Source: an uncultured Verrucomicrobiota bacterium
GTDB taxonomy: Bacteria > Verrucomicrobiota > Kiritimatiellia > RFP12 > UBA1067
Assembly: GCA_946610035.1 (NCBI GenBank)
Contig: CAMOCC010000007.1
Coordinates: forward strand, 1 to 58,282
Length of the DNA: 58,282 nt
Direction: 5' to 3'
Under the pieces are notes generated by a model. It saw only the letters and a program-made list of their open reading frames with translations, ran no database searches and was not told where the DNA came from. Below are positions 108-58,280 of this stretch, piece by piece (position 1 is the stretch's first letter; every line of letters begins with the position of its first letter). The translations under genes were made by a program, and so were the position numbers.

Positions 108-2581
108 TATCCTCCCTTGATGCGGTAGACGGAGAGTGAGAACGGCGGGAGGGCGACGGACCAGTTGCGGCCGCCCGGACACTTCACCTCGCCTTCCACC
201 GTGGCGCACTTCTTCGGCTCTGCAATGGAGTTCTCGTCGTCGCGCCCGCCGCTCAGGCGCTGTAGGGCAACGCGCCCTGCTGGAACGGCCTTCGCAAAGC
301 GGAGGTCGACCTTCTTCTCCGCCTCCGACGTGTTGACGAGTTTCACCACGAGTTCGCCGGACTTCTCGTCACGACCGCACGTCTCGAACACCTCGGGCAC
401 CGCCGCCCTGGAGACGCGCGCCGTCGTTGCGACGGCGCCGTTCACCTTCGCAACGAGCAAGTCGCCCCTGAGCGAAACCGAGACATTGTACCACTCGCCC
501 GTTGCGAATCCTCCATCGACGCGCCGGGCGTCCGAAAGCCCGTAGCCCGTCGACTCGAAGGCGTGCGCCACGTTGCCCCAGCCGCCGAGGTTTGCGTGGA
601 CGCGCCTCGTGCCGTGCTCGCCGTCCACCAGCAGCGCGACGATCACGCCTTCCGCGCCGGCCGTGCGCCTGAACTTGAAGGACACTTTGACATCGCCCCA
701 CGAGTCGTCGCCGAATCGAAGGAGCGTATCCGTCTTGTCCGTCGCCACCTGACGGAGGACGCCGCCCTCCAGACGCCAGTCGCCGCCCGCGTCCCTTGCG
801 CACTTGGCCGGGTCGGGCAGTTCGGAGAGGAGCACCCTTCCCGACGCATCGACGACCTTGAGGTCCTTGATCTCGGCGGCGGTGTTCCACGTCTGCAACG
901 CGACGCGGCCCTTGAGAGGCCTCTCCGTCCCGTCGACAAGACTGGACGGGACGATGCGCGTCGGGAGGTTGCGGGAGAACATCTTCTGGACGTAGTAGTT
1001 TGGCGTGCCGAAGCTCTTTGCGTTGTCGAACCAGATGAGATCCGTCTTCCACTGCGTCCCGCCGATCTTGCAGAAGAGCGGCGCGTAGCTCGTCATCTCG
1101 ACGATGTCGGAGTTCCGTTCGAAGCCGGTCATCATCGCCGCTTCGCATAGCGCGGAGTAGAGGCTGTTGGCCCGGTTGGGCAGGTGGCATGCGTACTCGC
1201 CCGCGTAGACCTTCGGCTTGCGGCCGGACCTGTCGTAGCCGTCGTAGCGCTTGGTGGAGCCGAGCAGCCAGTCCGCACTGACGTAGTAGTGCTCGTCCAC
1301 GACGTCAGCAGTCTCGGTCGTGAGGCGGTTCCAAGCATAGTCGAATTCGCGTCCGCCGGGCCCCGCGCCGGACGAGGACACGATTCTGATCTCGGGGTGG
1401 AGGCGGCGCATCTCCTTGGCTACGGCCTCGAAGCGGTCGAGGTATTCGGGGCCCCAGTTCTCGTTGCCGATTCCGAGATACTTCATCTTGAACGGTGCGG
1501 GATGGCCCATCTTCGCGCGGACCGCGCCCCACTTCGTCGTCTTCGGGTCGCCGTTGGCGAACTCAACAAGGTCGCAGAAGTTCTTCACGAAGTAGTCCAT
1601 GTTTTCGAGCGGCGCGAGGTCCCACGGCTTCGCGAACTGGCACGTGAGGCCCGAGTTCATCACCGGAAGCGGCTCCGCGCCGATGTCCTCGCAGAAGCAG
1701 AAGTACTCGTAGTAGCCGAGTCCCATCGTCTGCCAGTACCCCCACGTGTTCCAGATGCAGCTCCGCGATTCGAGCGTGCCGTCGCCGACGGAGAGCTTCC
1801 AGTCGTACCACTGCGGCCAGTCGCGTCCCTCGGTCAGGCAGCCGCCGGGGAAGCGGACGATTCCGGGCTTAAGGTCCGCAAGTAGCTGCGCGAGGTCCCT
1901 GCGCAGTCCGTTTGCCCGTCCCCTGAACGTGTCCTTGGGATAGAGCGAGACCTGCTCGAACTCGACCGCGCCGGGCGAGTCGAGGAGGAGGCTGAACGTG
2001 ACGTTGCCTGATTCCCCGGGGACGAACACCGTCTTGTACTTCCTCCACTCCGGCAGCGGGAATACGCCGTTCTCGCGCTTCGGCCCGACCACGAGGTCGG
2101 AATTAGCAAGCTTGTACTCGCAAAGCGTCCTGCCGTCCTTTTCGAGCACGGCCCTCACTCCGCCCTTGTATCCGTCAAGCGCGCGCGCATAGAACGAAAG
2201 GTCGTACTTAGCGCCCGCCTCGACGTGAATGCCGTGGTACCCGCGATTTTGCACGCCGGTGCCTGTTCCCGCGCCGAACGCCTCGATGCGAAGGTGTCCG
2301 GCGGACGCTTCATGCACCGGTCGACCGAACTGGCGCGTTATGCGCGCCATGCCGCCGCCGCGGCAGTCGCGGTGCCAGCCGTCCGGCTCGGACGTCTTCC
2401 AGTCGAAGCCGCGGTTCTCCAGGAGCTCGGGGTAGAGTCCCCCGTCGGCGGAGAAGTTGATGTCCTCGAAGAAGATGCCGTACAGCGTCTTCGGGACCTC
2501 GTGCGACGTCCTGTCGTTCTCGATGTCGACCGTTACCGTGCCGGCTGCGACCGCCCCGGCGGCGAGAAGTAGACCTATCAT
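104..2581 (-). CDS. secreted alpha-L-arabinofuranosidase, GH51
   Basis: Predicted to release alpha-L-arabinofuranosyl residues from arabinan or arabinoxylan outside the cytoplasm. The 825-aa product starts with a short hydrophobic signal (MIGLLLAAGAVAAG). A jelly-roll region follows, then a clan GH-A barrel with the acid/base motif YLGIGNENWG and a likely nucleophile Glu in VYAGEYACH. A LamG-like beta-sandwich is inserted before the C-terminal beta domain that typifies GH51. The ORF track begins 18 codons further out, but I chose the ATG at 2581 because GGAGGA lies 6 nt upstream and the signal peptide then sits at the N-terminus. It appears monocistronic. The extra LamG-like module makes it longer than simple GH51 enzymes. 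The family call is firm; the exact substrate is inference. Confidence 0.92.
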   Translation of the reverse strand: MIGLLLAAGAVAAGTVTVDIENDRTSHEVPKTLYGIFFEDINFSADGGLYPELLENRGFDWKTSEPDGWHRDCRGGGMARITRQFGRPVHEASAGHLRIEAFGAGTGTGVQNRGYHGIHVEAGAKYDLSFYARALDGYKGGVRAVLEKDGRTLCEYKLANSDLVVGPKRENGVFPLPEWRKYKTVFVPGESGNVTFSLLLDSPGAVEFEQVSLYPKDTFRGRANGLRRDLAQLLADLKPGIVRFPGGCLTEGRDWPQWYDWKLSVGDGTLESRSCIWNTWGYWQTMGLGYYEYFCFCEDIGAEPLPVMNSGLTCQFAKPWDLAPLENMDYFVKNFCDLVEFANGDPKTTKWGAVRAKMGHPAPFKMKYLGIGNENWGPEYLDRFEAVAKEMRRLHPEIRIVSSSGAGPGGREFDYAWNRLTTETADVVDEHYYVSADWLLGSTKRYDGYDRSGRKPKVYAGEYACHLPNRANSLYSALCEAAMMTGFERNSDIVEMTSYAPLFCKIGGTQWKTDLIWFDNAKSFGTPNYYVQKMFSRNLPTRIVPSSLVDGTERPLKGRVALQTWNTAAEIKDLKVVDASGRVLLSELPDPAKCARDAGGDWRLEGGVLRQVATDKTDTLLRFGDDSWGDVKVSFKFRRTAGAEGVIVALLVDGEHGTRRVHANLGGWGNVAHAFESTGYGLSDARRVDGGFATGEWYNVSVSLRGDLLVAKVNGAVATTARVSRAAVPEVFETCGRDEKSGELVVKLVNTSEAEKKVDLRFAKAVPAGRVALQRLSGGRDDENSIAEPKKCATVEGEVKCPGGRNWSVALPPFSLSVYRIKGGY

Positions 2582-2607
2582 GCTCAATCCTCCTTTTTTT
2601 TGCGCTA

Positions 2608-2634
2608 GATAAAATCTTTGCCGATATTTTATCA
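2608..2634 (-). promoter_or_regulatory. GH51 promoter with inverted repeat
   Basis: On the minus strand TGATAAAAT (2626-2634) looks like an extended -10. It lies 44 nt before the ATG. Arms GATAAAAT (2608-2615) and ATTTTATC (2626-2633) form a perfect inverted repeat overlapping this -10, so a repressor could bind here. Operator function is inference. Confidence 0.45.
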
Positions 2635-2694
2635 AACTACCGCCCCGCCATCAACTACCCAAATGTGTGATGTGGGCCACGGCGTAATTGAAAT

Positions 2695-2703
2695 ATGCTA
2701 TAA
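2695..2703 (+). promoter_or_regulatory. extended -10 promoter of the MoxR operon
   Basis: TGCTATAAT ends at 2703, 24 nt before the first ATG of the MoxR gene. No convincing -35 element is visible, as for most TGnTATAAT promoters in this window. Confidence 0.65.
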
Positions 2704-2727
2704 TACCTCTTAAGCATCAATCCACAA

Positions 2728-3708
2728 ATGGAGCTACATGAAATGACTTTGCTGGACCCTACGGAAATTGAGCGCGTCAAGGCGGACCTCGACCGAGTCC
2801 TCTCTTCGCTCGACTCCATGCTGCTCGGGCGCCCCGAGCTGCACCGCCTCGTCCTCGCGGGCGTGCTCGCGCGCGGGCACATCCTCCTCGAAGGCCTCCC
2901 CGGGCTCGGCAAGACAGCCCTCGTCCGCGCCCTCGCCGAAATCCTCGAACTGGACGCCAAGCGCATCCAGTTCACGCCGGACCTCATGCCATCCGACATA
3001 CTCGGCGCCCACATCCTCGAAACGCGCGCGGACGGCGGCAAGGAGATGGCGTTCCGCCCCGGCCCCGTCTTCTGCAACCTCCTCCTCGCCGACGAGATAA
3101 ACCGCGCCTCGCCGAAGACGCAGTCCGCAATGCTCGAAACAATGCAGGAGCGCACCGTCACCCTCATGGGCGTGACGCGTCCCCTGCCGGACCCCTTCTT
3201 CGTCCTCGCAAGCCAGAACCCCATCGAACTCGAGGGCACCTACCCCCTTCCCGAGGCCCAGACGGACCGCTTCCTCTTCAAGCTCCCCGTCGCCTCGCCC
3301 GACGCCGCGACGCTCGCCTCCATCATCACGACCCGCTCTCACGGGACGATGCCCAAGCCCGGCTTCAAGCTCGGACGCGAGGCGTTGCTCAGGGCTATGG
3401 ACACGGTCGCCCGCGTTGTCCTGCCGGACGCCGTGGCGAGCTGGATCGGACACCTCGTGGCGGCGACGCACACCGTCCCCCACGTCACCTACGGCGCCTC
3501 CCCGCGCGCGGCGATCGCCATGGCCGAGGCCGCGCGCGCCGTCGCGCTCATGGCCGGCCGCCCGTCCGTCGGCTTCGACGACGTCCGCCAGGTCGCCTTC
3601 CCCGTCCTCAACCACCGCCTCATACTCGACTACCGCGCGAAGCTGGACAACGTCTCGCCCGCCAGGATAGTCGAAGACCTCCTCGCCTCAATCCCAATCG
3701 CGGAATGA
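2728..3708 (+). CDS. MoxR-family AAA+ ATPase
   Basis: Cytoplasmic AAA_3 ATPase of 326 aa thought to act as a chaperone for vWA-domain partners. Walker A is GLPGLGKTA (about residue 55), Walker B is LLADEINRA, and an arginine-finger region follows in PEAQTDRF; the C-terminal lid runs to the end. Length is normal for the family. It is the first gene of a six-gene plus-strand operon that also encodes a DUF58 protein and a triple-vWA protein, the usual partners of MoxR. Start choice is uncertain: GGAG at 2730-2733 would suit the ATG at 2743 (MTLLDPTE) better than the ATG at 2728. Confidence 0.93.
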   Translation: MELHEMTLLDPTEIERVKADLDRVLSSLDSMLLGRPELHRLVLAGVLARGHILLEGLPGLGKTALVRALAEILELDAKRIQFTPDLMPSDILGAHILETRADGGKEMAFRPGPVFCNLLLADEINRASPKTQSAMLETMQERTVTLMGVTRPLPDPFFVLASQNPIELEGTYPLPEAQTDRFLFKLPVASPDAATLASIITTRSHGTMPKPGFKLGREALLRAMDTVARVVLPDAVASWIGHLVAATHTVPHVTYGASPRAAIAMAEAARAVALMAGRPSVGFDDVRQVAFPVLNHRLILDYRAKLDNVSPARIVEDLLASIPIAE

Positions 3709-3712
3709 AAAA

Positions 3713-5536
3713 ATGAAGCTGTCGCACTTATTCATCCTCATCTCTTCAATCGCCCTCGCATACGAATGCGAATGCGCGACCGAAAGATCGGTGATGTCCG
3801 TAAGCCTCGACCTCCCGAAAACAAGCGGCAGAGGCGAAGGCCTCGACGTCGTGAACTGGACGGTCCTCCCCCCGCACACGGGGCACGGCACGGTCCTCTA
3901 CGACTTCACGATACGAAACCACCTCAACCGCGAACGCACAGTCCAGGCATCGGTCCGCATGCGCCGCTGCATGGAGTTCCAGCGCACGGTGAAGATCGGC
4001 CCCAACGGGTCCGCCCGCCTCAGGATGCCCGCGCCGCTGTGCATGGAAAGGAACAATAACTGGGATTCGCCCTTCGTAGAGCTAACGTCGGACAAGCAGT
4101 CGAATCCCTCGGAAAGAATCAAGCAATCCATTCCCCTGGCCTACGGCTCGGACTGGATCGACACCCGCGAAACGGCTCCCGAGAACTTGATCCCGCAGGT
4201 GCTGCTCTCCCGCGCGTTCTCGGCCGAGAAGTTCCACAAGTTCATACCGACGCCGTCGCGCAAATCAGGCGAGGCGGAGGAGGAGTGGATGGACATCCTC
4301 TCGCTCAAGGCCGCGCCCGACGAATGGCCGTCCGACTATCGCTCGTACTCGACCTTCGACGCAGTCGTCATGGAGAAGCCCCTATACGACGCACTCCCGG
4401 CGAAGACGAAGCGAGCCATCGAGGACTACAAGATCCTGGGCGGCGCAGTGTTCGTCGTGGACGGCGTGGCGGACGGCCTGCCGACGTCTTGCGGCGAAGC
4501 GGACAGGAAAAGGATGCGCGATGCGATCTTAAAATCAAACGAGCGGCTTTCCGGCGACCTCGACATCGCCGCATGGGGCAGCGGAAGCAATGTGCACGTC
4601 AGAAGAAGCGGACTTCTCTCGGAGAATATCGGCTTTCTCGGACTCGAGCTGCCCAGTCCAGTGCCGTCCGGACTTTTCGTCCTCATCCTCGCCGCCATGG
4701 TTCTCCTGGTCATGCCCATCACGGCGCGCCGCTGCGCAAAGGCGAACCGCAGGATGATGATGCTGGTCTTCCTCCCCGCGATATCCGTGGGCGCGGCAGT
4801 CCTCTTCTTCCTGATCGCCCTCTTCGACTTCGGCACAACCCCGTTCGCGTCGCAGCGCTCCATAACCCGACTCGACCAGACGGCCCGCCACGCCGTCACC
4901 CAAAGCGCCTTCGCGATTTACACTCCCGTTTCGGTGGACGGACAGCTCGCCTTCTCCAGCGAGGACGGCGTGAGGCTCCGCGACTTCAGGGAGTCGAGCC
5001 ACGACGGATACGTTTTTCGACACGGAGGCAGCGCCCACGACGACGAGCCTCATTCGCAGGGATTCGCATCGGGACGCGACTTCGTCCCACACGGCTGGGT
5101 GAGTCCGCTGGTAGCCACGTTCATCGATTCCGACTCGGCGTACGACAGGTCCGAAAGGCTGGACATCACCGAGGGACACGACGGCACGCTCAAGGTCGTC
5201 AACCTTCTCGGCGCGGACGTGAAGTCCGGTCGCATCGGCTACGGCGGCAAGGTGTACGTCCTCGGCGAACTGAAGGCCGGCGCGACGACGCAGGCGAGGT
5301 CCGACGGCAGGATGTACGCCGGTGGCGATGCGGACGCGACATACGCCTCGTTCTTCTCCAGGCGTTCCTCCTACGGACGCAACTGGAACGCCGTCCTCGA
5401 GAAGTTCGGGCAGACCACTTCCGTCGGCGATCGCGCATACGCCGTCCTCGTCGACGGCTCGCCCTTCGCATCCTCGCCGCTCGGGGACCGCAAAGTGAAG
5501 GGATCCGCCGAGTCGATAGTCGTCGGCAGCTTCTGA
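3713..5536 (+). CDS. membrane-anchored exported protein of MoxR/ABC operon
   Basis: A 607-aa protein I cannot name. It has an N-terminal signal sequence (MKLSHLFILISSIALA), an extracytoplasmic beta-rich region, then a segment (about 210-260) resembling a class-I amidotransferase-like fold (DAVVMEKPLYDAL...GGAVFVVDG). Two transmembrane segments follow near residues 322-378, then a second soluble domain. Comparable proteins accompany MoxR/DUF58/vWA operons, but the function is unknown. It starts 4 nt after the MoxR gene stop, so it is co-transcribed, and it is followed after 10 nt by the ABC ATPase. It may be an accessory component of the transporter. Assignment beyond 'membrane component of this operon' is inference. 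Confidence 0.8.
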   Translation: MKLSHLFILISSIALAYECECATERSVMSVSLDLPKTSGRGEGLDVVNWTVLPPHTGHGTVLYDFTIRNHLNRERTVQASVRMRRCMEFQRTVKIGPNGSARLRMPAPLCMERNNNWDSPFVELTSDKQSNPSERIKQSIPLAYGSDWIDTRETAPENLIPQVLLSRAFSAEKFHKFIPTPSRKSGEAEEEWMDILSLKAAPDEWPSDYRSYSTFDAVVMEKPLYDALPAKTKRAIEDYKILGGAVFVVDGVADGLPTSCGEADRKRMRDAILKSNERLSGDLDIAAWGSGSNVHVRRSGLLSENIGFLGLELPSPVPSGLFVLILAAMVLLVMPITARRCAKANRRMMMLVFLPAISVGAAVLFFLIALFDFGTTPFASQRSITRLDQTARHAVTQSAFAIYTPVSVDGQLAFSSEDGVRLRDFRESSHDGYVFRHGGSAHDDEPHSQGFASGRDFVPHGWVSPLVATFIDSDSAYDRSERLDITEGHDGTLKVVNLLGADVKSGRIGYGGKVYVLGELKAGATTQARSDGRMYAGGDADATYASFFSRRSSYGRNWNAVLEKFGQTTSVGDRAYAVLVDGSPFASSPLGDRKVKGSAESIVVGSF

Positions 5537-47441: not shown

Positions 47442-48437
47442 TCAATTCCTCTTGAAAAGCTTCTTCATCTCGGAGATGCGCGACTTGTCCGCGACAAGCA
47501 CCGAGTCCGGCGTCGTGACGACGACGAGGTTCTTCACCCCGAGGAGCGATATGCGCGCCGAGCGCGCGACGCAGATGTTGGAGTCGGACTCCACGACGGT
47601 GCACGGACCCTCCCGGACGTTTCCGCGCGAATCGTGGGGGAAGTACGTGTCGAACGCGGCGAAGCTGCCGACGTCGTCCCATCCGAAGTCGCCCGGAACG
47701 ACATCCACCCCGCCGCACTTCTCCATCACGGCGAAGTCGAAGGAAATCTTCGGCAGCGCCTCGTAGACGTCGCGGAGTTCTGCGGAGAACCTGCCTGAGG
47801 CGAGCGGCACGAGGTCCGGCGCGTGCGCTGCAAGTGCGGACCGGAACGTCCCCGCCTTGGCGATGAACATTCCGGCGTTCCAGAGATAGCCCTTCTTCAG
47901 GTACGCCTTCGCCTTCTTCGCGTCCGGCTTCTCGACGAACGACCCCGTCTTCGGATCGACGTAGCCGAAGCCCGTCGCCGGGAAAGTGGGCTTGATTCCG
48001 AGCGTCACGATGCGCCGGCCCCTGGAGGCGATGGAGACCGCCTTCTTCACCGACGCGCGGAAGCGCCTGGGGTCCGCGACCATCTGGTCGCTCGGGAAGA
48101 AGCCGACCACCGTCCGGTCGTCGCTCCCCGCCTCGCCTACTCCGAGCGCGACAGCCGCTCCGGTGTCGCGGCGCATGGGTTCGCCGATGACGTTGTCGGA
48201 CGGAAGCTCCGGGAGTTCGCGACGCGTCGCCGCGACAAGTTCCTTCGATGTTACGACGTACACGTCCTCGAACCGGACGAGCCCGAGAAGGCGCATCACG
48301 CTCTGGCGTATGAGGCTCTCGCCTCCGAAGACGCGCAGGAACTGCTTCGGACGCTCCGGTGTCGAGAGCGGCCAGAAGCGTTCGCCGCATCCCCCGGCGA
48401 GTATCACCGCCTTGAAATCAATAGAGTTTCTTGCCAT
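47442..48437 (-). CDS. mannose-1-phosphate guanylyltransferase
   Basis: A 331-aa nucleotidyltransferase that makes GDP-mannose from GTP and mannose-1-phosphate. The N-terminal motif is VILAGGCGERFWPLSTPERPKQF; further blocks are VIGEPMRRDTGAA, FFPSDQMVAD, FVEKPDAKKAK, WNAGMFIAK and FGWDDVGSF, typical of ManC/AlgA-like enzymes without the isomerase half. The start overlaps the end of the transglutaminase-like gene by 20 bp, indicating coupling. The product feeds surface polysaccharide or glycoprotein synthesis. Confidence 0.93.
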   Translation of the reverse strand: MARNSIDFKAVILAGGCGERFWPLSTPERPKQFLRVFGGESLIRQSVMRLLGLVRFEDVYVVTSKELVAATRRELPELPSDNVIGEPMRRDTGAAVALGVGEAGSDDRTVVGFFPSDQMVADPRRFRASVKKAVSIASRGRRIVTLGIKPTFPATGFGYVDPKTGSFVEKPDAKKAKAYLKKGYLWNAGMFIAKAGTFRSALAAHAPDLVPLASGRFSAELRDVYEALPKISFDFAVMEKCGGVDVVPGDFGWDDVGSFAAFDTYFPHDSRGNVREGPCTVVESDSNICVARSARISLLGVKNLVVVTTPDSVLVADKSRISEMKKLFKRN

Positions 48438-50445
48438 ATACAAGTATCTTGCGTAGATGAAAGAATTCTTCCTTCGCGTCTGGCGCGCGACCGACCTTTA
48501 TGTACTTCGCCTTGACGGGCTTCTTGAACTGACACTTCCATTCGAGTTCGTTCGACTCCGATGCGAAGACCTCCGTGAACTCCCCTCCGTCGTCGCTGGT
48601 CCACACCCTGATCGGGACCTGCCGCGACGAGTTCTGCCCCGGGACGTTCACTATCGTCACACCCGTTATGTCGCTGGAGCCCGGAAGGACGACCATGCCC
48701 CAGGGCGCCTTCTCCTTCGCCGTGTGGAAGGCGTTTCCGGAGTCGAAGTCCGCCGCCGTCAGCCCCGAGCGGTAGGTGACCGGATTCTCCCAGCTGCTCG
48801 TACCGGACGTCTGGAGGAGCCCGTCCGGCGAAAGAAGCGTCCCTCCGTACGCCTCCGTCGGCCAGGGCTTCCCCTTCGCCTTCGGCTCCTCGCCTGGCGA
48901 GAGCTTGGACATTAGCGAGTAGACCTGGCGGAACATCGTTATGTCGCCGCTCTGGGACGCCTTCAGCACCATCCCCTTGTAGTCGAGCTTCTCCCCGGTC
49001 TTCTCGGCGCTCTTCCCGACGACTGCGAGGAACGTCTTGGACGCCGCCGCGTCCGCCATCAGCCTCTCGGCGCCCCACGTGATCGTCTGCCTGTAGAACG
49101 TCGTCGTTCCGGCCTGTCCGTCGAGGGCGGACTGGAAGACCTCCCACATGGCCTTGTCGTCTTTCGGAAAGAGCTTGTCGAGCGGCTTGAGCGCCATGTC
49201 CGCCCAGTAGGGCGCTTCAACAGTCGGCGCCTTGTTCTCCTTCATCGCGGCAAGAGCGAGCTTCGCCGCCGAAAGGCGCGCATCGCGTCCCTTGATGCGC
49301 CCGAGGTAGGGGAGATAGAGCTGCCAGCCCTGGGACGGAGCCTCCGCAAACGTGTCGCGCACGGCGGCCGCCCAGGCGTCCCATTCCGCTGCGGAGGCGG
49401 ATCGCCTCTCGAGGTCGCAGTACCATGCGACGGCGGCGGACCAGTTGCCGGGACAAAGCCTCATCGACTTCTCCCACTCGCCCTTCCAGCGCAGATACTC
49501 CGCGTCCATCCTCTTCGGACTCCTGTAGTAGCGGTCCTGCTCCTCCAGCGCCGCGAAGTCGTGTCCGCCCAGCGTGTTGTGCGGCGCGGTGTGGCCCGTC
49601 ACCGAGTACGCCGTCCCCCAGCGATCGTCGTCGCGGTTCCATACGAGGTACGCGCAGTGCCCGGGCTGGCCCGCCGTGAAGGACCTCACGCCGTGCGAAG
49701 CCGCGCCGTGGGAGCCGAACTTGGATAGCGCCCCGCACACGCCGCCTATCCTGTACCTGAGCTCCTGCGTGTTCCAGCGGTGCTCCCATGGCGCGTAGTA
49801 TTGCGGACCATGCACGCTCGCGCCGAAGCAGTTGAAGGTTCGATAGTGGCACTGCCAGCAAAGCCCCGGATAGCGCTCGGACGGGACGTTGGCGAAGTCG
49901 TGTATCCACTCCAGGCATTCGACGGGAAGATTGGCGTTCTGCCCGAAGCCCAGCACCTCGCGCCACTGGCGGACGTCGTACTTCTTCGAGTCGACGTGCA
50001 GCGTCCCGTCCCCGGCCCATTCGCGGTAGAGTTCCATGACGCGCACGAGCTTCTCTCCGTCCCAGTCGTGTCCGTGGCTCAGCGCAAGCGCCGTCGCGAT
50101 GTTGCGCCCGATCGTCGTGGATATGAAGTCGCCCTCGTCGTTCCAGACCAGAAGGTCCAGCGCTTCAAGCGCCTTCGCCGCGAGCTCGTTGTTCTCCTTG
50201 AGCCCCTTGTAGGGATCGATGCTCCACGGACCGGACCCGGCGAACTGCTCCATCCACCTCTGGTCCGCAAAGAACCGCTTGAGAAACGCCCCGCCCCCTT
50301 CGCGTCCCTGAATCGCCTTTATCGCAGCCTCGCCAACGCACGACCGAATGTAGTTGCGTACGACCGCCGCATCCCGCTTCACCGCCTGGGCGAAGGAGAT
50401 CAAGGCCGTCAAGACGCAAGCGATCAACAGTGATATCCGAGTCAT
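48418..50445 (-). CDS. secreted transglutaminase-like protein with discoidin-type C-terminus
   Basis: A 675-aa exported protein. Signal peptide MTRISLLIACVLTALISFAQA; a helical region; a transglutaminase-like core (about 215-320) with a candidate Cys in RIGGVCGALSKF and His in GQPGHCAYLVW; another helical region; and a C-terminal F5/8 (CBM32)-like domain (about 545-675) with SSWENPVTYRSG and RVWTSDDGGEF. Such proteins may cross-link or cut peptide bonds at the cell surface; activity unknown. The track's start adds 26 codons crossing the promoter. ATG 50445 lies 7 nt after TATAAT. First gene of the six-gene operon ending with argH. Confidence 0.82.
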   Translation of the reverse strand: MTRISLLIACVLTALISFAQAVKRDAAVVRNYIRSCVGEAAIKAIQGREGGGAFLKRFFADQRWMEQFAGSGPWSIDPYKGLKENNELAAKALEALDLLVWNDEGDFISTTIGRNIATALALSHGHDWDGEKLVRVMELYREWAGDGTLHVDSKKYDVRQWREVLGFGQNANLPVECLEWIHDFANVPSERYPGLCWQCHYRTFNCFGASVHGPQYYAPWEHRWNTQELRYRIGGVCGALSKFGSHGAASHGVRSFTAGQPGHCAYLVWNRDDDRWGTAYSVTGHTAPHNTLGGHDFAALEEQDRYYRSPKRMDAEYLRWKGEWEKSMRLCPGNWSAAVAWYCDLERRSASAAEWDAWAAAVRDTFAEAPSQGWQLYLPYLGRIKGRDARLSAAKLALAAMKENKAPTVEAPYWADMALKPLDKLFPKDDKAMWEVFQSALDGQAGTTTFYRQTITWGAERLMADAAASKTFLAVVGKSAEKTGEKLDYKGMVLKASQSGDITMFRQVYSLMSKLSPGEEPKAKGKPWPTEAYGGTLLSPDGLLQTSGTSSWENPVTYRSGLTAADFDSGNAFHTAKEKAPWGMVVLPGSSDITGVTIVNVPGQNSSRQVPIRVWTSDDGGEFTEVFASESNELEWKCQFKKPVKAKYIKVGRAPDAKEEFFHLRKILVYGKKLY

Positions 50446-50452
50446 GGAATAT

Positions 50453-50461
50453 ATTATACCA
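50453..50461 (-). promoter_or_regulatory. leaderless promoter of the six-gene operon
   Basis: Minus-strand TGGTATAAT, hexamer 50453-50458, exactly 7 nt (ATATTCC) before the ATG at 50445. The predicted +1 is at or next to the start codon. Confidence 0.65.
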
Positions 50462-50462
50462 T

Positions 50463-50504
50463 ATTTTTGCTTTAGCCGTGTAGAACGTGTAGAAACGTTA
50501 CCAC
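50463..50504. repeat. CGTGTAGAA decamer repeat, copy B
   Basis: ATTTTTGCTTTAGCCGTGTA continues into two 10-bp units and CGTTACCAC. It is homologous to 39577-39662 minus an internal stretch, and lies directly upstream of the operon promoter. Confidence 0.7.
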
Positions 50505-50518
50505 ATTCGCCCGCCTCC

Positions 50519-50716
50519 GCCACTCACAGGGGGTCCGTCGCTCCGCGACGGACATCGTCGTCGCCGCGCCCCTACACTCCAATCCTCTTCCGACCCTAAC
50601 CGACCCTAATTGACCGTCTCAGCCACTCACAGGGGGTCCGTCGCTCCGCGACGGACATCGTCGTCGCCGCGCCCCTACACTCCAATCCTCTTCCGACCCT
50701 AACCGACCCTAATCGA
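50519..50716. repeat. 103-bp tandem duplication with triloop hairpin
   Basis: Two near-identical copies start at 50519 and 50622. Each carries a hairpin GGTCCGTCGC-TCC-GCGACGGAC, the same arms as at 40284-40306, and CCGACCCTAA decamers. No gene is seen in 50505-50771. Confidence 0.85.
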
Positions 50717-50771
50717 CCCTAATCTGCCTCTATAGGCCCGTCGCTGACCCAGACCTTGACTTCCTCCGACC

Positions 50772-53700
50772 TTACTCAATCGAAATCGGCACCGAGCCGA
50801 CCTTCTTGACCGTGGCCGTGCCATAGCCGACGCCGTCGACTACAACGCCAGCGACGTTGACCGTCACGGCTTTCGGCTTGCCGTTAACGAGCGAGTACGC
50901 CTTGAACGAGCCTTTGAACGAACCGTCCTTCGCCTTGTACGTCAGCTTCAGTGCGGCTGGATTCCCGCCGAGCTTCGCCTCGTCGACAGTTCCGTCTTTC
51001 GCCATCTGCACCTTCCCGGCTTTCGGCAGCGTCCAGCGCGTACCGTTTGCCGTCACCGCAACACCGTCCGGCATATACGGTAGGGCGCGCTGTCCCCAGC
51101 GCGCCGAAAACTCCTCGGCGTCAATGCGGAACCTCGCGCCCGCCTTGAGTGCGCCAGCCTTGCCGACGACCACGTCGCCCGGCAGCCCCTCGACAACCGC
51201 CGCGCCACCGCCGACCGGCAGCCAAAGCGTAAACGCAAGATTCATCTTCTTCGTCACTACGACTGGCACGCACAGCCATTCCTCGCCGACGAGCAGCTGG
51301 GTGTTCACCATGGCCTTCGTGCCGTTCGCGAGCGTAACGTACACCTTCGCCTTGCCCTTCTTGCCAATCGTCACAGACAGCATCTGGTAGGGTGCGCTCG
51401 CCGAGCGCGCCGCACCATCCTCACGCCACGCTACATTGATGACGCCGAGCCACTTCGAAAGAATCGCATTCGCCGCGTTCTGCTCGCCCTTGTCCTTCGA
51501 CGTGAAGAAGTTCCGCGCGCCGTCGATGAAGTACGAGCCGTAGGCGCCCTCCAGCCCTTCCGCGCCAAGCGTCACTTCGCAAGGTTCACCGCCGACAAGC
51601 CGAATCGTCGTCGGGCCGTCCACGGCAATCGCCGCCTTGCCCTTGTCGGCACCCTTGAGGGACTTCTTCTTGCCATCCAACCCGACGACCGTCGCCTTCA
51701 CCGCGGCAAGCCCAGTCTTCGCGTTCGCCTTCCCGATCTTCACCTGTATTGTGCCCTTCACAGCACCGCTCTTCTCGTCGTACAAGTAGCCGTTGTACTC
51801 GCTCGCCGCAGCCGTCGGCGCAACACCTTCTACACCATCAGGCCACAGCTCGTTTTGCGTCTTCTCCCAGACGGCGTAGAGCGTAACGACGTCGCCTGCC
51901 GTCGCCGTCAGGTTGTTCACAGACTGCTTGTCTGCGTATACAACAGCACCATCAGGAGTCAACGACCATCCAGCAAAGGCGTACATCTTGCGCGTGAACG
52001 CATTCGCGGAGAGCTTCTGCGCCGTGCCGTACACGAACGCCTGGTCGGCCATCGTGCCCACGCCGCCGTTGGCGTTAAAGCGTACCTTGTACGGATTAGC
52101 CGTCCAATTGGCGTACAGCGAGAACTCTCCTGTCGGCACGATTGCCATCGGCGTGGCTTTTGTTCCTGTGCCATTCTCGCCCGTGTACCATGCATCGAAG
52201 GTGTAGCCCGTGCGCTTTTCGGTTGGCGTCGGCAGTTCGCCGAACGGCTCGCCTGCAATCAGCATGAGATTCGTCGTCACGCCGTCAATCTCAAGTGAAA
52301 CATCATGGAACCGCGCGACAGTATTCCACCAGAACGGATCAGTTTCAATCGGCGCGTTGTAGTCGAACACTATTGTCGCACTATTGGTTATCACGACATT
52401 CTTCGGCGCGTCGTCCCGCACCTTGATGCGATAGCTGATGTGCCCTTCGCCGCAATGCGTCTCGGGATCGTTCGGCGGAAGGAACCCGGCGTACGGATCG
52501 GCGGGCCACGTCGTCTCATCTGAATTATCGACGATGCGCAAATACCAATGCGCAACACCCTGCATAGCGACGGCGCCATCGCCGTCAACTCCACCGCCAA
52601 GCGTCGTCCTCACATTGAAGTTCGTGCCGTTCATCTGCACTTCGCTTGCGCCACCGTTCGATCCGCTCAAGCCAAGGTCGATCTGGTTGCCGAACGACAC
52701 CTCGCCCATCTCGAACGTCGACCAGTCAAGCCACTCGCTAAGCGGGTTCGTGACGAACACCTCCTGCGCCGCCGCCGTCGCATTCGTCTTGTTCTCGAAG
52801 TAGATGGTGTAAGTCACCCACCCGCCCGGCTGCACATACCGCGCCTCGCCAGTTCCCTCCGGCCCCACCATCTCGTTGGGATCGCAGGACTTGGGAACTT
52901 TTGGTTTCTTCTGATCTTCTAGTTTCTTGTTCTTGTCTTCTTCGTTGCATTTACATTTAGAACCTGGCTTTCGTAATGCAGGATCAGATTGACTAGAAGC
53001 GGGGCAACGACACATTTTCTCGGAAACCAATGAGAAAATTTCCCTAAAGAGATAGGCATTCATATCATTACAACTCTCTATCTCATAACGTATAGCATCC
53101 ATAAGTCGACCCCATTCTGCAAGGGTAGAATCCGTACCAATGGCTTCTAACTTCAAAATGAACGCAGCCGCTTTTCCTATTGAATCAATAAGCGGCCTGG
53201 CTGGGCCTAGGGCTTTATCTCCATCCACAATACGCTTCGCCAATGCCCCTAATGTAGTGTTGGGGCTCGTCATGGCAACCTTGTTTGCCAAGCCCACGGC
53301 CTTATCGTATGCATCAACACTAGAGCTCACCATCCTGAGCACTTCCTTGACACCTTCAATACCATTCAATTCCATGCTTGAAAAACGATCCAAACTTTCC
53401 CGTAATTGACTTATGTCCTTTATCATATCATTGACACCCGTAATCGCATTGGCCGTTGCTGTCCCTACATCCTGCCCGTTTCTTACGTTCTCAAGAAAAG
53501 AGATTGAATCGCTCACAATGGAATCAATACCATTTATGAATTGTGCGCGAGTCGTACCAAAATTCTTGAATTCCATCATCTTTGCCATTGCCGAGAAAAA
53601 GTCAGAACCAGCGCCCATTATATTGCTAAGAAGATCAGAATTAACTCCAGCATCAGCCTTGGCCACTGCCCGTTCTAGGCAATGTATCTCATCAAGATAT

Positions 53701-56700
53701 TGTTGTAAATTGAATCGCAGACGTTCCACTAATTCATGGTCGTCTTTAGTAATGCATGCAGTACATGCACTTAGGAAGAGCTTACTATTTTCCTCATACA
53801 TCTCAAAATTTTTCTTATACAATTCTCTATGATTTTTGATTGCGGTCTTACCATTCTTTACCGCATTAATGTTATCGATCAAATCTGACCAAAACGAACC
53901 CTTCAGTACGGCACTTTTCCTTCTTCCATTTCTCTCATTCCCTTCAGACTCATTGAGAATACTTTTATTGCCGACGCACTTCTCGAACACCATATTTGGC
54001 GAAGAACCAGGAACCAAGGTCAAATTCGTAACACAATAGCGCGCTTCGTCGCCCATGACCGTAATCAGCGTGTAGTCTCCTGGCACGACGTCGGATACCG
54101 AGAATCCCCCTTCAACATCGAGACCTTCAAAAAACACATGACCATCGGGGCAAAACACTAGAACTCCTCCACGTTCATTCTCCGCAAAATCGACAAAATA
54201 CCCGTTGAAAGAACAAGCGTCATGCAGTTCCACATCAATAACATCACCTTCCAATTTCGGCAATGATACGGCCATTCTACAAAGTCTTCCCAGAGACGAC
54301 CGAACTTCAAGCGTATACATACCTTCGGGAAGACCGCGGAACTGCACATAGCCATCAGTAATCATCACAGATCCGTACACAGTATCGTCCGATTCTTTCA
54401 CAGCTGTCGCACTGATGGTTTCTCCCTCGTTCAGATTTGTGATAGCCACATAGAAAGACAGACTATTTTCGACAACAATCATTTTGCCGCCAATATCACT
54501 GTTCATTACTACAAATTCATCTACACCGTCCACAATAACGGAATCAGCTGATTCAAATCTGTAAACACCATTGGTTATGCCAGTCATATAAAAGAATCCA
54601 TTCCTGTCCGTAACAGCACTGGAGAAGATGCCTTCCGCGCTTTCACTGGCAACAATATGCACACCAACACCATCGCATGGTTCACCATAAGTGTTTACTG
54701 CAAATCCGGTGACAATTAATGTATCAGGATTCTGCGACACCAACTGTGCTATGTTCCCCACAATAGAATAGTCCGTGGCATCCACCCCTAAGCGGGACAA
54801 TCTTCTCACAGTCTTGCGCACCAGAACTGTGTCACAATCTTTAATACCGTAAGTCTGCCCATCTCCCATACGCAGGCGGACATTGTTTGTAGCCCCAGCT
54901 TTCATAAGGAACTCAAAGCGCCGCACCTCGCCAGGCAACAACATATCCGCGTTTTCACTACCACCGACGCCGAAGAATCGCAATACCTCACGCCAAGTCT
55001 CGTCTCCCGTATATCGCAGTTTACACGGCTCATCAGCAATCACTTCGAATATCGGCAATGTACCGCTCTTATCCCCTGAGTTTCCATATTCCACATAGCA
55101 GGCCACCACTCGACCTTCCCGAACAGAATCAGGTACAATTAGCCGCGCCCATATGTTTTCCTTTCTTCCACCAGAAGAAACAAGGACCTTCCCCACCACT
55201 ACACTATCAATGGAAATCTGCATCTCCGAGCCAGCGACAAGCCCCTCGCCATCAACTTCAATAACAACCCTCTCCTTCGAAGTATAGGATACTCTTGTAG
55301 GAATAGACCCGCCAGAATCCAAGGACATCACAATATTCGCAACATTATCGAGACCTATACCATCAAGCGTTATAGATACAATTTCATCGGGCGGAATCGC
55401 ATTCGGCGATACGGAGAGGATCGCCAGGTCGCCGCTCTCGAATGACACAGAATAGTTCTGCCCGTCGGACTGCGCGGCGTCCATCACGAGATAGACCTCG
55501 GCCGTTCCTGCGGGGACATGGAAAATCGCCTCGCCCTTCTCCGTCGCCGTCATCGTACCGGACGCATAAGCACCCTGCGGCACGAAGCCAAGTCCATACG
55601 AAACCGACAAACCGGCAGGGACGCTCACGCGGGCGATCTGTCCCGTCGTTCCTGCGGGGAACGTGAACTTCACGACTGTGCTGCTTCCGGCGGAGAGAGT
55701 ACCCGATGCGCCGTCGGCATACGGCGTCGCCGCCACGGAGATTGCAACGCCCTGCACAGACGTCAAGACATTGTTCGTCGTGTTCAGCCCCTCCGGCACG
55801 TCGGAGCGGCGGTTGTTCGTGTTCACGCGCGCATACCACGTTCCTTCGGAAAGCGCGGGAATCGTAAACGTTCTGTTGACGTTCATGCTCATCTTGCGCT
55901 TGAGCGTGTAGGTGGTGAGAACCTCGCCCAGCTCGACGCTCTGCCCTGACGTCGAAATGAGGCTTACGGCATCATGCCATCCGCCGACGACATCTTCCGT
56001 TCCGAGGTTCTGGATAGTCCACGAGACCTTGACCTTGTCACCAACCTTGGCCTTTGTCTTGTCAACCGAAACGGCGGTCGGCACGATGTCGTACGGAGAC
56101 TCGTCCTCATCCCACAGCACTTCGTGTATGCCTATGTCTGGACAATTCCCATTCGCACTTGGCACACCGCTGTCCGTCACCTTACCCACATCGCGCCGCT
56201 CCAAGCCATAGTAGTCCTTCTCCGGCGCAACTGTTCCATCGCCCGCATCCACGCACGGCGAATTGGCGGCAATACGAAAATCGCCGTTAGCAGGATTGAC
56301 GAAAAGCGGATTCGCGTAGAAATTACCATCCTTACCGACTTTCGCAGCCGCGCGGTCACCTGTTCCTTCCGGATTCCAGAAACAGCAATTGGAGAACTTA
56401 CTGGACAACGTAGCCGAATAGAACTTAGTGTCGATTATATCTTGTGCAACATCAGCGAAGATACAGTTAGCAAATGTACCATTCCCCCACCGAACAGCAG
56501 TAGTAAGAGAACAGAACACGCAGTTGACAAAAGTCGATTTACCGCTTTGTGGCGCTGCTCCCATGGAGGCATCGGTGAATACAGAATTTTCTGCGATAAA
56601 GATACCGCCCGCGCCTCTCATGCAGTCGTACTGGCAATGCGCGACAGTAGAGTTCTTAAACCGCATGGTTCCTGCACATGGATATAACGCACCTTGATTG

Positions 56701-58280
56701 TTCACCGCGCTGCAATACAACACCTTGGCATATTCTATATTTGCAGTTCCATTGTTTTTAATCTGATGCCAATCGCCAGCCTGCGGCTCCGTCGCAATTC
56801 CGTCTCCGTTTGTGTCGCCGCCGTTGGCGTCATCCTTAATGGAAGTGAAGACGATGGGCAGCGCACGCGTGCCGACAGCCTGCAATGTGCCACCGCTGTT
56901 GACTGTAAGCGATTTTCCAGCGGCAAACTTCACGATCACGCCTGGCTCAATCGTAAGCGCCGCGCCATTAGAAATCGTAAGGTTATCCCGAACCACATAC
57001 AAGTCACCCGTGCGCCATGTTGCACTGGCGGAAACAGCACCGCTTACATAGTTCGTCTGAGCTGGGCGAATCTCCCAATGGGCATAAAGTGTAGCTGGCG
57101 AATCTGGAACTTTTGACGTCTCTGTGACGACATTTCCACCGTCCGCATCCGTAAACCATCCTGTGAAATTGTAGTATGGCCGCAACGGCGTCACTGGCAA
57201 TGTTCCGTATGTTCCACCCTTCTCAAAGTAATCAGCTGCAACTACATTGTCCTCCGACATAAACGATACCAATGTCGACGGCACGACAACGAACGCAACC
57301 GAATTCGAGTTGTTGGCATAGTTCGTCTCTCGAATCAGACGCGGCTCGTTAAGAACCCAAGTGGCGGTATATTCACCAGGAGCGAGATTCTGGAGGTTGG
57401 ACGGAAGCTTCGATTCGCTTGCCATGGCACGGTTCACAGCATGCTGTCCCGCGCCCCAACCTTCCGTCCATGTTTCCGGCACACCGCTGACATACAACGT
57501 ATTTGTATTGCATTCGATTGCAAGATCGCACCACTCTTCAAAACTTCCGTACGTGGAATAAATAGGTCTACCTGCTATGAAACGGGCACAGGCGTTCGTC
57601 GCGTTCATCTTATCCGCCAAGAAGAAAGCGGATTCCCAATTGCCTTTCTTGTAAAACACCAAATCATACGGCGCATCGGCATCTGCCGTAATCTCGCTTG
57701 CCGGCTTCACGGCATAACCGCGCCATGTTTCCGACCATTCGTCGTTATCGTCCGCGCGATAGATTATGGCGGCGGATTTCATCTTGTTGAAGGCATTGTT
57801 GCCAACAGTAGTCGGCGGATCGCCACGGAAATTCAGATAACGCAGACAAGGACAATTGCCAAATGCATAAGCGCCTATGCTCGCAATCCTATTTCCGAAT
57901 GTCACGCTGCCAAGCAGTGAAGACCCGTAGAAACACTGAACACCAATCGAGGTTACGGTATCTGGGAATACGAGCCTGGAGACTGCACACCGTGTGAAGC
58001 TCTGGTTGCCAATGCTACGAAGCGAGGAGCCGAACACGATGTTCGTCAGCGACACGCATCCCGCGAACGCCCCGTACTGCTCGTAGCCGTTGTCCCCGCT
58101 CGTGTCCGTGCTGTCGTTGCCGTGCCCGCCAATCCCGGTCAGCCCGTCCCCGAGCACAACCTCCCCGAGTGACGTGCAGAACGTGAACGACCCGCCGCCA
58201 ATCACTGACACTGAGTCGGGGATGACGACGCGCTTCAGCGACGAGCACGACTGGAACGCATACGGGTTAAAGCCCCTCAC
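50772..58280 (-). CDS. giant multidomain secreted protein (partial, N-terminus outside window)
   Basis: At least 2502 aa, open at the window edge. In order: LRR_5/BspA-like repeats (1-165; SIGAYAFGNCPCL); CARDB-like; InlB B-repeat (about 370-402; FTGWFTDADGG, LYAHW); right-handed beta-helix (405-720); CARDB (735-860); a pre-peptidase-like domain; TIG/IPT (about 960-1040; ILSVSPNAIPPDEIVSITLDG); Cna-B-like modules (1200-1460); a long helical region (about 1480-1780); a Cys-rich Lys/Glu linker; a DUF11-like domain (SCDPNEMVGPEG); two InlB repeats; and a C-terminal beta domain ending VKKVGSVPISIE. DNA for about 960-1790 is much more AT-rich than the rest. Likely a surface or exported adhesin. 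Two palindromes lie in the C-terminal coding region. Confidence 0.88.
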   Translation of the reverse strand: MRGFNPYAFQSCSSLKRVVIPDSVSVIGGGSFTFCTSLGEVVLGDGLTGIGGHGNDSTDTSGDNGYEQYGAFAGCVSLTNIVFGSSLRSIGNQSFTRCAVSRLVFPDTVTSIGVQCFYGSSLLGSVTFGNRIASIGAYAFGNCPCLRYLNFRGDPPTTVGNNAFNKMKSAAIIYRADDNDEWSETWRGYAVKPASEITADADAPYDLVFYKKGNWESAFFLADKMNATNACARFIAGRPIYSTYGSFEEWCDLAIECNTNTLYVSGVPETWTEGWGAGQHAVNRAMASESKLPSNLQNLAPGEYTATWVLNEPRLIRETNYANNSNSVAFVVVPSTLVSFMSEDNVVAADYFEKGGTYGTLPVTPLRPYYNFTGWFTDADGGNVVTETSKVPDSPATLYAHWEIRPAQTNYVSGAVSASATWRTGDLYVVRDNLTISNGAALTIEPGVIVKFAAGKSLTVNSGGTLQAVGTRALPIVFTSIKDDANGGDTNGDGIATEPQAGDWHQIKNNGTANIEYAKVLYCSAVNNQGALYPCAGTMRFKNSTVAHCQYDCMRGAGGIFIAENSVFTDASMGAAPQSGKSTFVNCVFCSLTTAVRWGNGTFANCIFADVAQDIIDTKFYSATLSSKFSNCCFWNPEGTGDRAAAKVGKDGNFYANPLFVNPANGDFRIAANSPCVDAGDGTVAPEKDYYGLERRDVGKVTDSGVPSANGNCPDIGIHEVLWDEDESPYDIVPTAVSVDKTKAKVGDKVKVSWTIQNLGTEDVVGGWHDAVSLISTSGQSVELGEVLTTYTLKRKMSMNVNRTFTIPALSEGTWYARVNTNNRRSDVPEGLNTTNNVLTSVQGVAISVAATPYADGASGTLSAGSSTVVKFTFPAGTTGQIARVSVPAGLSVSYGLGFVPQGAYASGTMTATEKGEAIFHVPAGTAEVYLVMDAAQSDGQNYSVSFESGDLAILSVSPNAIPPDEIVSITLDGIGLDNVANIVMSLDSGGSIPTRVSYTSKERVVIEVDGEGLVAGSEMQISIDSVVVGKVLVSSGGRKENIWARLIVPDSVREGRVVACYVEYGNSGDKSGTLPIFEVIADEPCKLRYTGDETWREVLRFFGVGGSENADMLLPGEVRRFEFLMKAGATNNVRLRMGDGQTYGIKDCDTVLVRKTVRRLSRLGVDATDYSIVGNIAQLVSQNPDTLIVTGFAVNTYGEPCDGVGVHIVASESAEGIFSSAVTDRNGFFYMTGITNGVYRFESADSVIVDGVDEFVVMNSDIGGKMIVVENSLSFYVAITNLNEGETISATAVKESDDTVYGSVMITDGYVQFRGLPEGMYTLEVRSSLGRLCRMAVSLPKLEGDVIDVELHDACSFNGYFVDFAENERGGVLVFCPDGHVFFEGLDVEGGFSVSDVVPGDYTLITVMGDEARYCVTNLTLVPGSSPNMVFEKCVGNKSILNESEGNERNGRRKSAVLKGSFWSDLIDNINAVKNGKTAIKNHRELYKKNFEMYEENSKLFLSACTACITKDDHELVERLRFNLQQYLDEIHCLERAVAKADAGVNSDLLSNIMGAGSDFFSAMAKMMEFKNFGTTRAQFINGIDSIVSDSISFLENVRNGQDVGTATANAITGVNDMIKDISQLRESLDRFSSMELNGIEGVKEVLRMVSSSVDAYDKAVGLANKVAMTSPNTTLGALAKRIVDGDKALGPARPLIDSIGKAAAFILKLEAIGTDSTLAEWGRLMDAIRYEIESCNDMNAYLFREIFSLVSEKMCRCPASSQSDPALRKPGSKCKCNEEDKNKKLEDQKKPKVPKSCDPNEMVGPEGTGEARYVQPGGWVTYTIYFENKTNATAAAQEVFVTNPLSEWLDWSTFEMGEVSFGNQIDLGLSGSNGGASEVQMNGTNFNVRTTLGGGVDGDGAVAMQGVAHWYLRIVDNSDETTWPADPYAGFLPPNDPETHCGEGHISYRIKVRDDAPKNVVITNSATIVFDYNAPIETDPFWWNTVARFHDVSLEIDGVTTNLMLIAGEPFGELPTPTEKRTGYTFDAWYTGENGTGTKATPMAIVPTGEFSLYANWTANPYKVRFNANGGVGTMADQAFVYGTAQKLSANAFTRKMYAFAGWSLTPDGAVVYADKQSVNNLTATAGDVVTLYAVWEKTQNELWPDGVEGVAPTAAASEYNGYLYDEKSGAVKGTIQVKIGKANAKTGLAAVKATVVGLDGKKKSLKGADKGKAAIAVDGPTTIRLVGGEPCEVTLGAEGLEGAYGSYFIDGARNFFTSKDKGEQNAANAILSKWLGVINVAWREDGAARSASAPYQMLSVTIGKKGKAKVYVTLANGTKAMVNTQLLVGEEWLCVPVVVTKKMNLAFTLWLPVGGGAAVVEGLPGDVVVGKAGALKAGARFRIDAEEFSARWGQRALPYMPDGVAVTANGTRWTLPKAGKVQMAKDGTVDEAKLGGNPAALKLTYKAKDGSFKGSFKAYSLVNGKPKAVTVNVAGVVVDGVGYGTATVKKVGSVPISIE
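51079..51105. repeat. palindromic element inside the giant gene (1)
   Basis: GGTAGGG overlapping the palindrome GGCGCGCT-GTCCCC-AGCGCGCC. On the coding strand it reads ARWGQRALPY, close to the GERALPG insert of the GH3 gene. Confidence 0.7.
51386..51411. repeat. palindromic element inside the giant gene (2)
   Basis: GGTAGGG overlapping GGTGCGCTC-GCC-GAGCGCGCC, with one G-T wobble. It uses the same CTCGCCGAG centre as the GH3 palindrome and encodes AARSASAPYQ. Confidence 0.65.

What the first reader, a model, noticed from the sequence alone, without database searches (positions are those of the whole stretch)
52900..55400. AT-rich module inside the GC-rich giant gene, including a helical insert in a beta-protein
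One 60-base line at 53041 has 22 G/C (37 %) while one at 51061 has 41 (68 %). The AT-rich part (about residues 960-1790) encodes TIG and Cna-B-like domains plus some 300 residues of helical sequence, unusual in an adhesin otherwise made of beta modules. The reading frame is unbroken across both borders. This suggests an in-frame acquisition of a large domain block from another genome.
Basis: partly seen in the sequence, partly recalled or inferred. Interest (0 to 1): 0.6.

Follow-up and report, generated by a model that had tools for sequence, protein, structure and literature searches.

The report
Swapped AT-rich cassette in giant protein
A giant, probably secreted surface protein of an uncultured bacterium carries an AT-rich middle section that starts and stops exactly where a related gene from another family switches to unrelated sequence, so it looks like an exchangeable cassette held between conserved ends, and the version here ends in a helical domain with no detectable relatives.

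Summary
The AT-rich block is real and sharply bounded. GC is 44.8% over 52881-55403, against 62% in a 590-kb sample of the same genome, where 5 of 2065 other 2.5-kb windows fall below 46%. The steps lie at codons ~960 and ~1796 of an open 2502-codon gene. At those two points DNA homology to a giant gene of another family (L126) stops and restarts: 78.5% DNA identity up to codon ~959, none across the block, 76% from codon ~1791. The block (TIG scaffold, carboxypeptidase-regulatory-like repeats, ~350 helical residues) fills a variable slot found in 35 genes of six families. In those genes the slot holds helical, PKD/beta, RHS or lipase-like sequence, always before a conserved DUF7619 domain. In 14 of 21 genes with a strong GC3 step it falls within 7 codons of the DUF7619 start. 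At one syntenic locus two sister species carry different cassettes between ~95%-identical flanks. In-frame acquisition is therefore partly supported: it is recurrent cassette replacement, seen within one class, with no outside donor found. The window's helical domain has no detectable relative, not even among the other helical cassettes. This is a new variant of known mosaic ("segmentally variable") surface genes.

The parts
50772..58280 (-). Giant surface-protein gene, 2502 codons, 5' end cut by the contig end
   Evidence: open frame; the window is the whole contig C7
57777..58280 (-). LRR_5 (BspA-type leucine-rich repeats), codons 1-168
   Evidence: Pfam PF13306 E 2e-29
56136..57053 (-). DUF5123 / choice-of-anchor-Q-like stretch, probably a beta-helix, codons ~410-715
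   Evidence: Pfam/NCBIfam weak hits; GC3 ~0.5
55404..56072 (-). CARDB-like and PPC-like conserved 5' flank of the cassette, codons ~737-959
   Evidence: 82% aa identity to L126 of another family over codons 735-959; CARDB weak hit; PPC is my reading
55400..55406 (-). Left joint: composition step and end of DNA homology to L126, codon ~959/960
   Evidence: change-point; blastn ends at gene nt 2878; codon-window identity 0.69 -> 0.49 nt
52896..55403 (-). AT-rich exchangeable cassette, codons 960-1795
   Evidence: GC 44.8%; no DNA homology to L126 across it
54759..55436 (-). TIG-scaffold segment, HMM codons 949-1174
   Evidence: HMM found in 34 related genes with intact architecture
53991..54713 (-). 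Carboxypeptidase-regulatory-like (prealbumin-like) repeats, codons ~1190-1430
   Evidence: PF13620 E 1.3e-11
52911..53960 (-). Orphan helix-rich domain, codons 1441-1790
   Evidence: AlphaFold2 all-helix, low confidence; no relative in 346 class genomes, phages or PDB
52881..52910 (-). Right joint: GC3 step at codon 1796 and restart of homology at 'PKSCDPNEM'
   Evidence: change-point; homology to L126 restarts at codon ~1791
52308..52883 (-). DUF7619 conserved domain, codons 1800-1991
   Evidence: PF24595 E 3.5e-18; present in 28 of 115 family genomes
51861..52289 (-). Listeria-Bacteroides (Flg_new) repeats, codons ~1998-2140
   Evidence: PF09479
50775..51848 (-). Conserved C-terminal part, 96% DNA-identical to another gene of the same genome (C54), inferred surface-anchoring or sorting region
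   Evidence: C54 ORF of 1450 aa

Best explanation
The block is an exchangeable cassette inside a giant surface protein. Shown: a conserved 5' scaffold (CARDB/PPC-like) and a conserved 3' scaffold (DUF7619 plus C-terminal repeats) flank a slot of 500-1130 residues that differs between relatives, and the composition steps of this gene sit on the joints. Inferred: homologous recombination or gene conversion in the conserved flanks, between tandem paralogues and between related genomes, swaps the TIG-plus-slot segment as one in-frame unit. Inferred: the protein is secreted through Sec (signal peptides in full-length relatives), the scaffolds hold it at the cell surface, and the slot is the business end (binding, lipase-like or toxin-like), here an orphan helical domain on an Ig-like stalk. 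Inferred: the low GC reflects an AT-rich source pool of cassettes, perhaps AT-rich members of the same order, kept from ameliorating by frequent turnover.
For: Composition steps at codons 960 and 1796 coincide with loss and return of DNA homology to L126 of another family: 78.5% DNA over 929 bp ending at codon ~959, none inside, 75.8% from codon ~1794 and codon-level ~1791. G131 versus G140 at one syntenic locus: 94% DNA over codons 3-789 and 96% from codon 1956, with an unrelated TIG-plus-slot between; the G131 cassette matches the tandem paralogue of G140. L043 versus L044 from different genera: DUF7619 91%, TIG 92%, slot 29% identical, while argH DNA is 71%. Other pairs: L094/L101, L051/L093 and L131/L131b have 89-98% identical DUF7619 and 21-28% identical slots. 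GC3 change-points lie within 7 codons of the DUF7619 start in 14 of 21 genes with a strong step (binomial p ~5e-17 if genes were independent). Slot contents include RHS and lipase by Pfam. An AT-rich relative (G454, slot GC3 0.23) carries a lipase-like cassette 40% identical over its length to that of GC-rich G023. Signal-peptide-like N-termini in G131/G140 genes (read by eye).
Against: No near-identical donor copy of this cassette was found, so the exchange is not seen directly for the window gene. In about a third of the genes the slot has the same GC3 as the flanks. The genes are related, so the binomial test overstates significance. AT-rich composition can also arise by relaxed selection in fast-evolving sequence. 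Function of the slot in this gene is not shown. All genomes are draft assemblies.
Confidence: 0.75

Rival explanations
1. Ancient vertical architecture: the slot was always there and simply evolves much faster; low GC comes from relaxed selection and AT-biased mutation, without module exchange.
For: The architecture is shared across six families. Low-GC slots recur in many genera. Slots are not markedly richer in GC3 than their flanks. The dinucleotide distance of the block (0.143) is high, yet one of 31 other low-GC windows of the genome reaches it.
Against: Sister loci G131/G140 with ~95% identical flanks carry unrelated cassettes, and the G131 cassette matches a paralogue. L043/L044 show the same abruptness. 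Fast drift does not give RHS, lipase and helical domains in one slot. The left and right edges are abrupt at single-codon scale.
Confidence: 0.12
2. Single in-frame insertion of a foreign AT-rich block into a GC-rich adhesin from a distant genome.
For: Strong composition contrast and open frame; the helical domain has no relative in 346 class genomes.
Against: The TIG and carboxypeptidase-regulatory-like parts of the block have homologues in the same position in relatives. The slot is filled in all 35 genes, so it is replacement, not insertion. No hit in phage, plasmid or viral collections.
Confidence: 0.08
3. Assembly chimera: the block was joined to the gene by misassembly or mis-binning.
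For: Draft genome of 191 contigs, 88% complete; repeated scaffold DNA in the genome.
Against: The frame is unbroken through both joints and the same layout occurs in independent assemblies. Flanks on both sides of the block match one single gene of another genome in order.
Confidence: 0.05

Closest known systems
Segmentally variable genes (Zheng, Roberts and Kasif 2004, PMC387263)
   Same: Variable regions of at least 70 residues bounded by the same conserved portions; cell-envelope genes are over-represented; a binding function is proposed for the variable part.
   Different: That paper reports no general GC difference between variable and conserved regions and argues against insertion of different sequences; here the variable part steps sharply in GC and different domains occupy the slot.
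Polymorphic toxin systems (Zhang et al. 2012, PMC3482391), RHS toxins in particular
   Same: Conserved trafficking part with exchangeable effector modules; some relatives carry RHS repeats with variable ends in this very slot.
   Different: The cassette is internal, followed by a conserved C-terminal half, not a C-terminal tip; no immunity gene was looked for; the window cassette is not a known toxin.
Giant surface proteins Giant1-5 of Apilactobacillus kunkeei (PMC12863079)
   Same: Proteins of thousands of residues; sequence exchange of one domain between genera; recombination tracts inside the genes.
   Different: Gram-positive, different domains; a bounded composition-marked replacement cassette is not described in the passages I read.
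BspA-like / internalin-type surface proteins (LRR_5 and Listeria-Bacteroides repeats)
   Same: Same repeat domains at both ends of the protein.
   Different: The DUF7619-bounded slot and C-terminal part are not features of internalins; no LPXTG-type anchor seen by eye.

Membership tests
Segmentally variable gene | Variable segment of at least 70 aa bounded by the same conserved segments in relatives | tested here: met
   Slot 500-1130 aa between TIG scaffold/5' flank and DUF7619 in 35 genes
Segmentally variable gene | No general GC difference between variable and conserved segments (reported property, not definition) | tested here: not met
   GC3 0.39 -> 0.73 at the border; paper statement
Polymorphic toxin | Variable toxin domain at the C-terminus after a conserved trafficking part | tested here: not met
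   Cassette is internal; DUF7619 and ~500 further residues follow
Polymorphic toxin | Recognisable toxin or nuclease fold in the variable part | tested here: not met
   No Pfam or PDB match for the helical domain
Polymorphic toxin | Adjacent immunity gene | not tested
   The next downstream gene (48418-50523) has no NCBIfam match; not examined further
LRR/BspA-type surface protein | LRR_5 and Listeria-Bacteroides repeats above Pfam cut-offs | tested here: met
   PF13306 2e-29, PF09479 1e-27
LRR/BspA-type surface protein | Signal peptide and surface location | not testable with these tools
   N-terminus lies off the contig; signal-like N-termini in relatives G131/G140
Foreign insertion (HGT island in a gene) | Close relative with an uninterrupted empty site | tested here: not met
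   Every intact relative has a filled slot; split RHS genes instead have two ORFs

The most novel reading that the evidence does not exclude
A family of giant surface proteins in one bacterial class uses a fixed slot, with a recombination joint at the DPNE(M) start of DUF7619 and another at the TIG start, to exchange effector cassettes (helical, PKD/beta, RHS, lipase) between tandem paralogues and between genera, with AT-rich relatives as a source pool; the window's helical domain is a new effector class.
Probability: 0.35. Interest if true: 0.7.

Novelty: new variant of a known kind. Interest (0 to 1): 0.5.

Why it matters
Composition steps inside a gene are usually only suggestive of transfer. 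Here they coincide with homology breakpoints, so the joints of a domain-exchange system in giant surface proteins of uncultured bacteria can be mapped to within a few codons. It gives a ready list of cassettes (helical, lipase-like, RHS, PKD) whose functions can be tested on a common scaffold, and a natural experiment (G131/G140) on how such genes recombine.

Tried and rejected
(1) Homology of the window's helical domain to the helical cassettes of L043-L047, L128, L131b and L134: rejected. Leave-one-out profiles find each of those eight (E 1e-6 to 1e-16) but the window's scores no better than its shuffles; an early alignment and the profile hit in G203 had suggested otherwise because the other members are related. 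(2) Fold identification: the window model is too poor (pLDDT 44). The model of the eight-member helical family is moderate (pLDDT 60, pTM 0.43), and its best PDB matches are generic helical bundles with E above 0.007 and TM below 0.35, not usable. (3) Donor search in phages, plasmids, viral contigs and GTDB contigs: nothing; the second GTDB scan, made with the C-terminal half, also failed, so no organism names were obtained. (4) GC3 survey by ORF: spoiled by wrong-frame ORFs, replaced by a frame-free GC scan. (5) Orthologous locus in closer relatives of the window genome: downstream flank genes gave no syntenic match among the loci fetched.

Full report
Observation. The finding lies in an open reading frame of 2502 codons on the minus strand (58280-50772), whose 5' end runs off the contig; the window is the whole contig C7 of a draft genome of 3.03 Mb in 191 contigs. 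The quoted line counts are exact. GC is 44.8% over 52881-55403; in 590 kb sampled from the same genome the mean of 2.5-kb windows is 62.1% (s.d. 4.0), and 5 of 2065 other windows are below 46%. GC3 is ~0.42 in codons 961-1790, 0.75 just before and 0.85 just after. The likelihood change-points are codon 960 on the left (11 codons after the TIG model start) and codon 1796 on the right (4 codons before the DUF7619 model start). The dinucleotide signature of the block is also unusual: 0.143 against a genome median of 0.071, 0.6% of windows as far.

Anatomy. From the N-terminus: LRR_5 repeats, a Listeria-Bacteroides repeat, a DUF5123/choice-of-anchor-Q-like stretch, a CARDB-like domain, a PPC-like domain (my reading), then the block: a TIG-like scaffold segment (my reading, modelled here), carboxypeptidase-regulatory-like repeats and ~350 helix-rich residues; then DUF7619, more Listeria-Bacteroides repeats and a C-terminal part. 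The C-terminal 354 codons are 96% DNA-identical to another gene of the same genome (C54), which points to homogenisation among paralogues.

The slot. Profiles of the TIG scaffold and of DUF7619, built from six genes, find both in order in 35 genes (window gene included) from six families of the class, separated by a slot of about 500-1130 residues. The slot contents differ: a homologous helical family in eight genes; PKD/prealbumin-like beta domains in many; RHS repeats (L132 in one ORF; L062, L103, L104, L105 as a TIG-RHS ORF followed by a separate ORF that begins with a signal-like peptide and DUF7619); lipase-like domains in L097 and L129 (40% identical to each other). The helical domain of the window gene is not a detectable member of the helical family of the other eight and has no relative in 346 genomes of the class, in phages or in the PDB.

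Composition step equals joint. Of 21 genes with a strong GC3 step near the DUF7619 border, 14 have it within 7 codons of the DUF7619 start (chance ~5e-17 if independent, which they are not). In pairwise DNA comparisons homology also begins there, 2 to 15 codons before DUF7619.

Direct evidence for exchange. (1) Window gene versus L126 (G451, another family): codons 735-959 are 82% identical in protein and 78.5% in DNA over 929 bp, the block has no DNA similarity, and similarity returns at codon ~1791; PurA is only 60% identical in protein between the two genomes. (2) G131 and G140, sister species with matching flanks of the locus: G140 has two tandem genes with different cassettes and 98%-identical DUF7619; G131 has a single gene whose 5' and 3' parts are those of the second G140 gene (94% and 96% DNA), while its TIG-plus-slot is that of the first. 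This is cassette replacement seen directly, and the unit is the same as the AT-rich block of the window gene. (3) L043 and L044, different genera: 84% and 88% DNA identity on either side of ~600 codons with none; their argH genes are 71% identical in DNA.

Interpretation. The block is best read as a cassette that occupies an exchange slot in a giant surface protein. The direction is open, because the GC-rich flanks are themselves more similar between families than housekeeping genes. Why cassettes tend to be AT-rich is not shown; an AT-rich pool within the order is plausible, since G454 (slot GC3 0.23) carries a lipase-like cassette related to that of GC-rich G023, but relaxed selection may add to it.

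Function. Secretion and surface location are inferred from repeat domains and from signal-like N-termini of relatives. That the slot is the working end is inferred from its contents in relatives (RHS, lipase). For the window's helical domain only the secondary structure is suggested, at low confidence.

Known parallels. Segmentally variable genes (PMC387263) describe the pattern of conserved and variable segments but report no general GC difference. Polymorphic toxins exchange C-terminal tips, which is not the layout here. Giant proteins of A. kunkeei also exchange a domain between genera (PMC12863079).

Noticed in passing
56120-58010 (codons ~91-720): A second, milder low-GC stretch (GC3 ~0.52) in the same gene; codons 505-655 are also poorly conserved against L126, suggesting another variable segment in the probable beta-helix.
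   Followed up: partly
50772-51833 and G000:C54:13907-14968: The last 354 codons are 96% DNA-identical to the end of another giant gene in the same genome, with further copies at 91-92% at the ends of contigs C86 and C8: gene conversion, and contigs breaking in these repeats.
   Followed up: partly
L062, L103, L104, L105: TIG-RHS genes followed by a separate gene that starts with a signal-like peptide and DUF7619: a split version of the window gene, broken at the same joint.
   Followed up: partly
50521-50770: A direct repeat of about 110 bases just downstream of the giant gene ('cactcacagggggtccgtcgctccgcgacggac...'), read by eye.
   Followed up: no
L146 around 1751-4250 (G000:C16): The only other 2.5-kb stretch below 46% GC in the 590-kb genome sample; not identified.
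   Followed up: no
L097 slot (G023) and L129 slot (G454): Lipase-like alpha/beta-hydrolase cassettes with a GHSHGG motif in L129, 40% identical to each other, in giant surface proteins of two families.
   Followed up: partly
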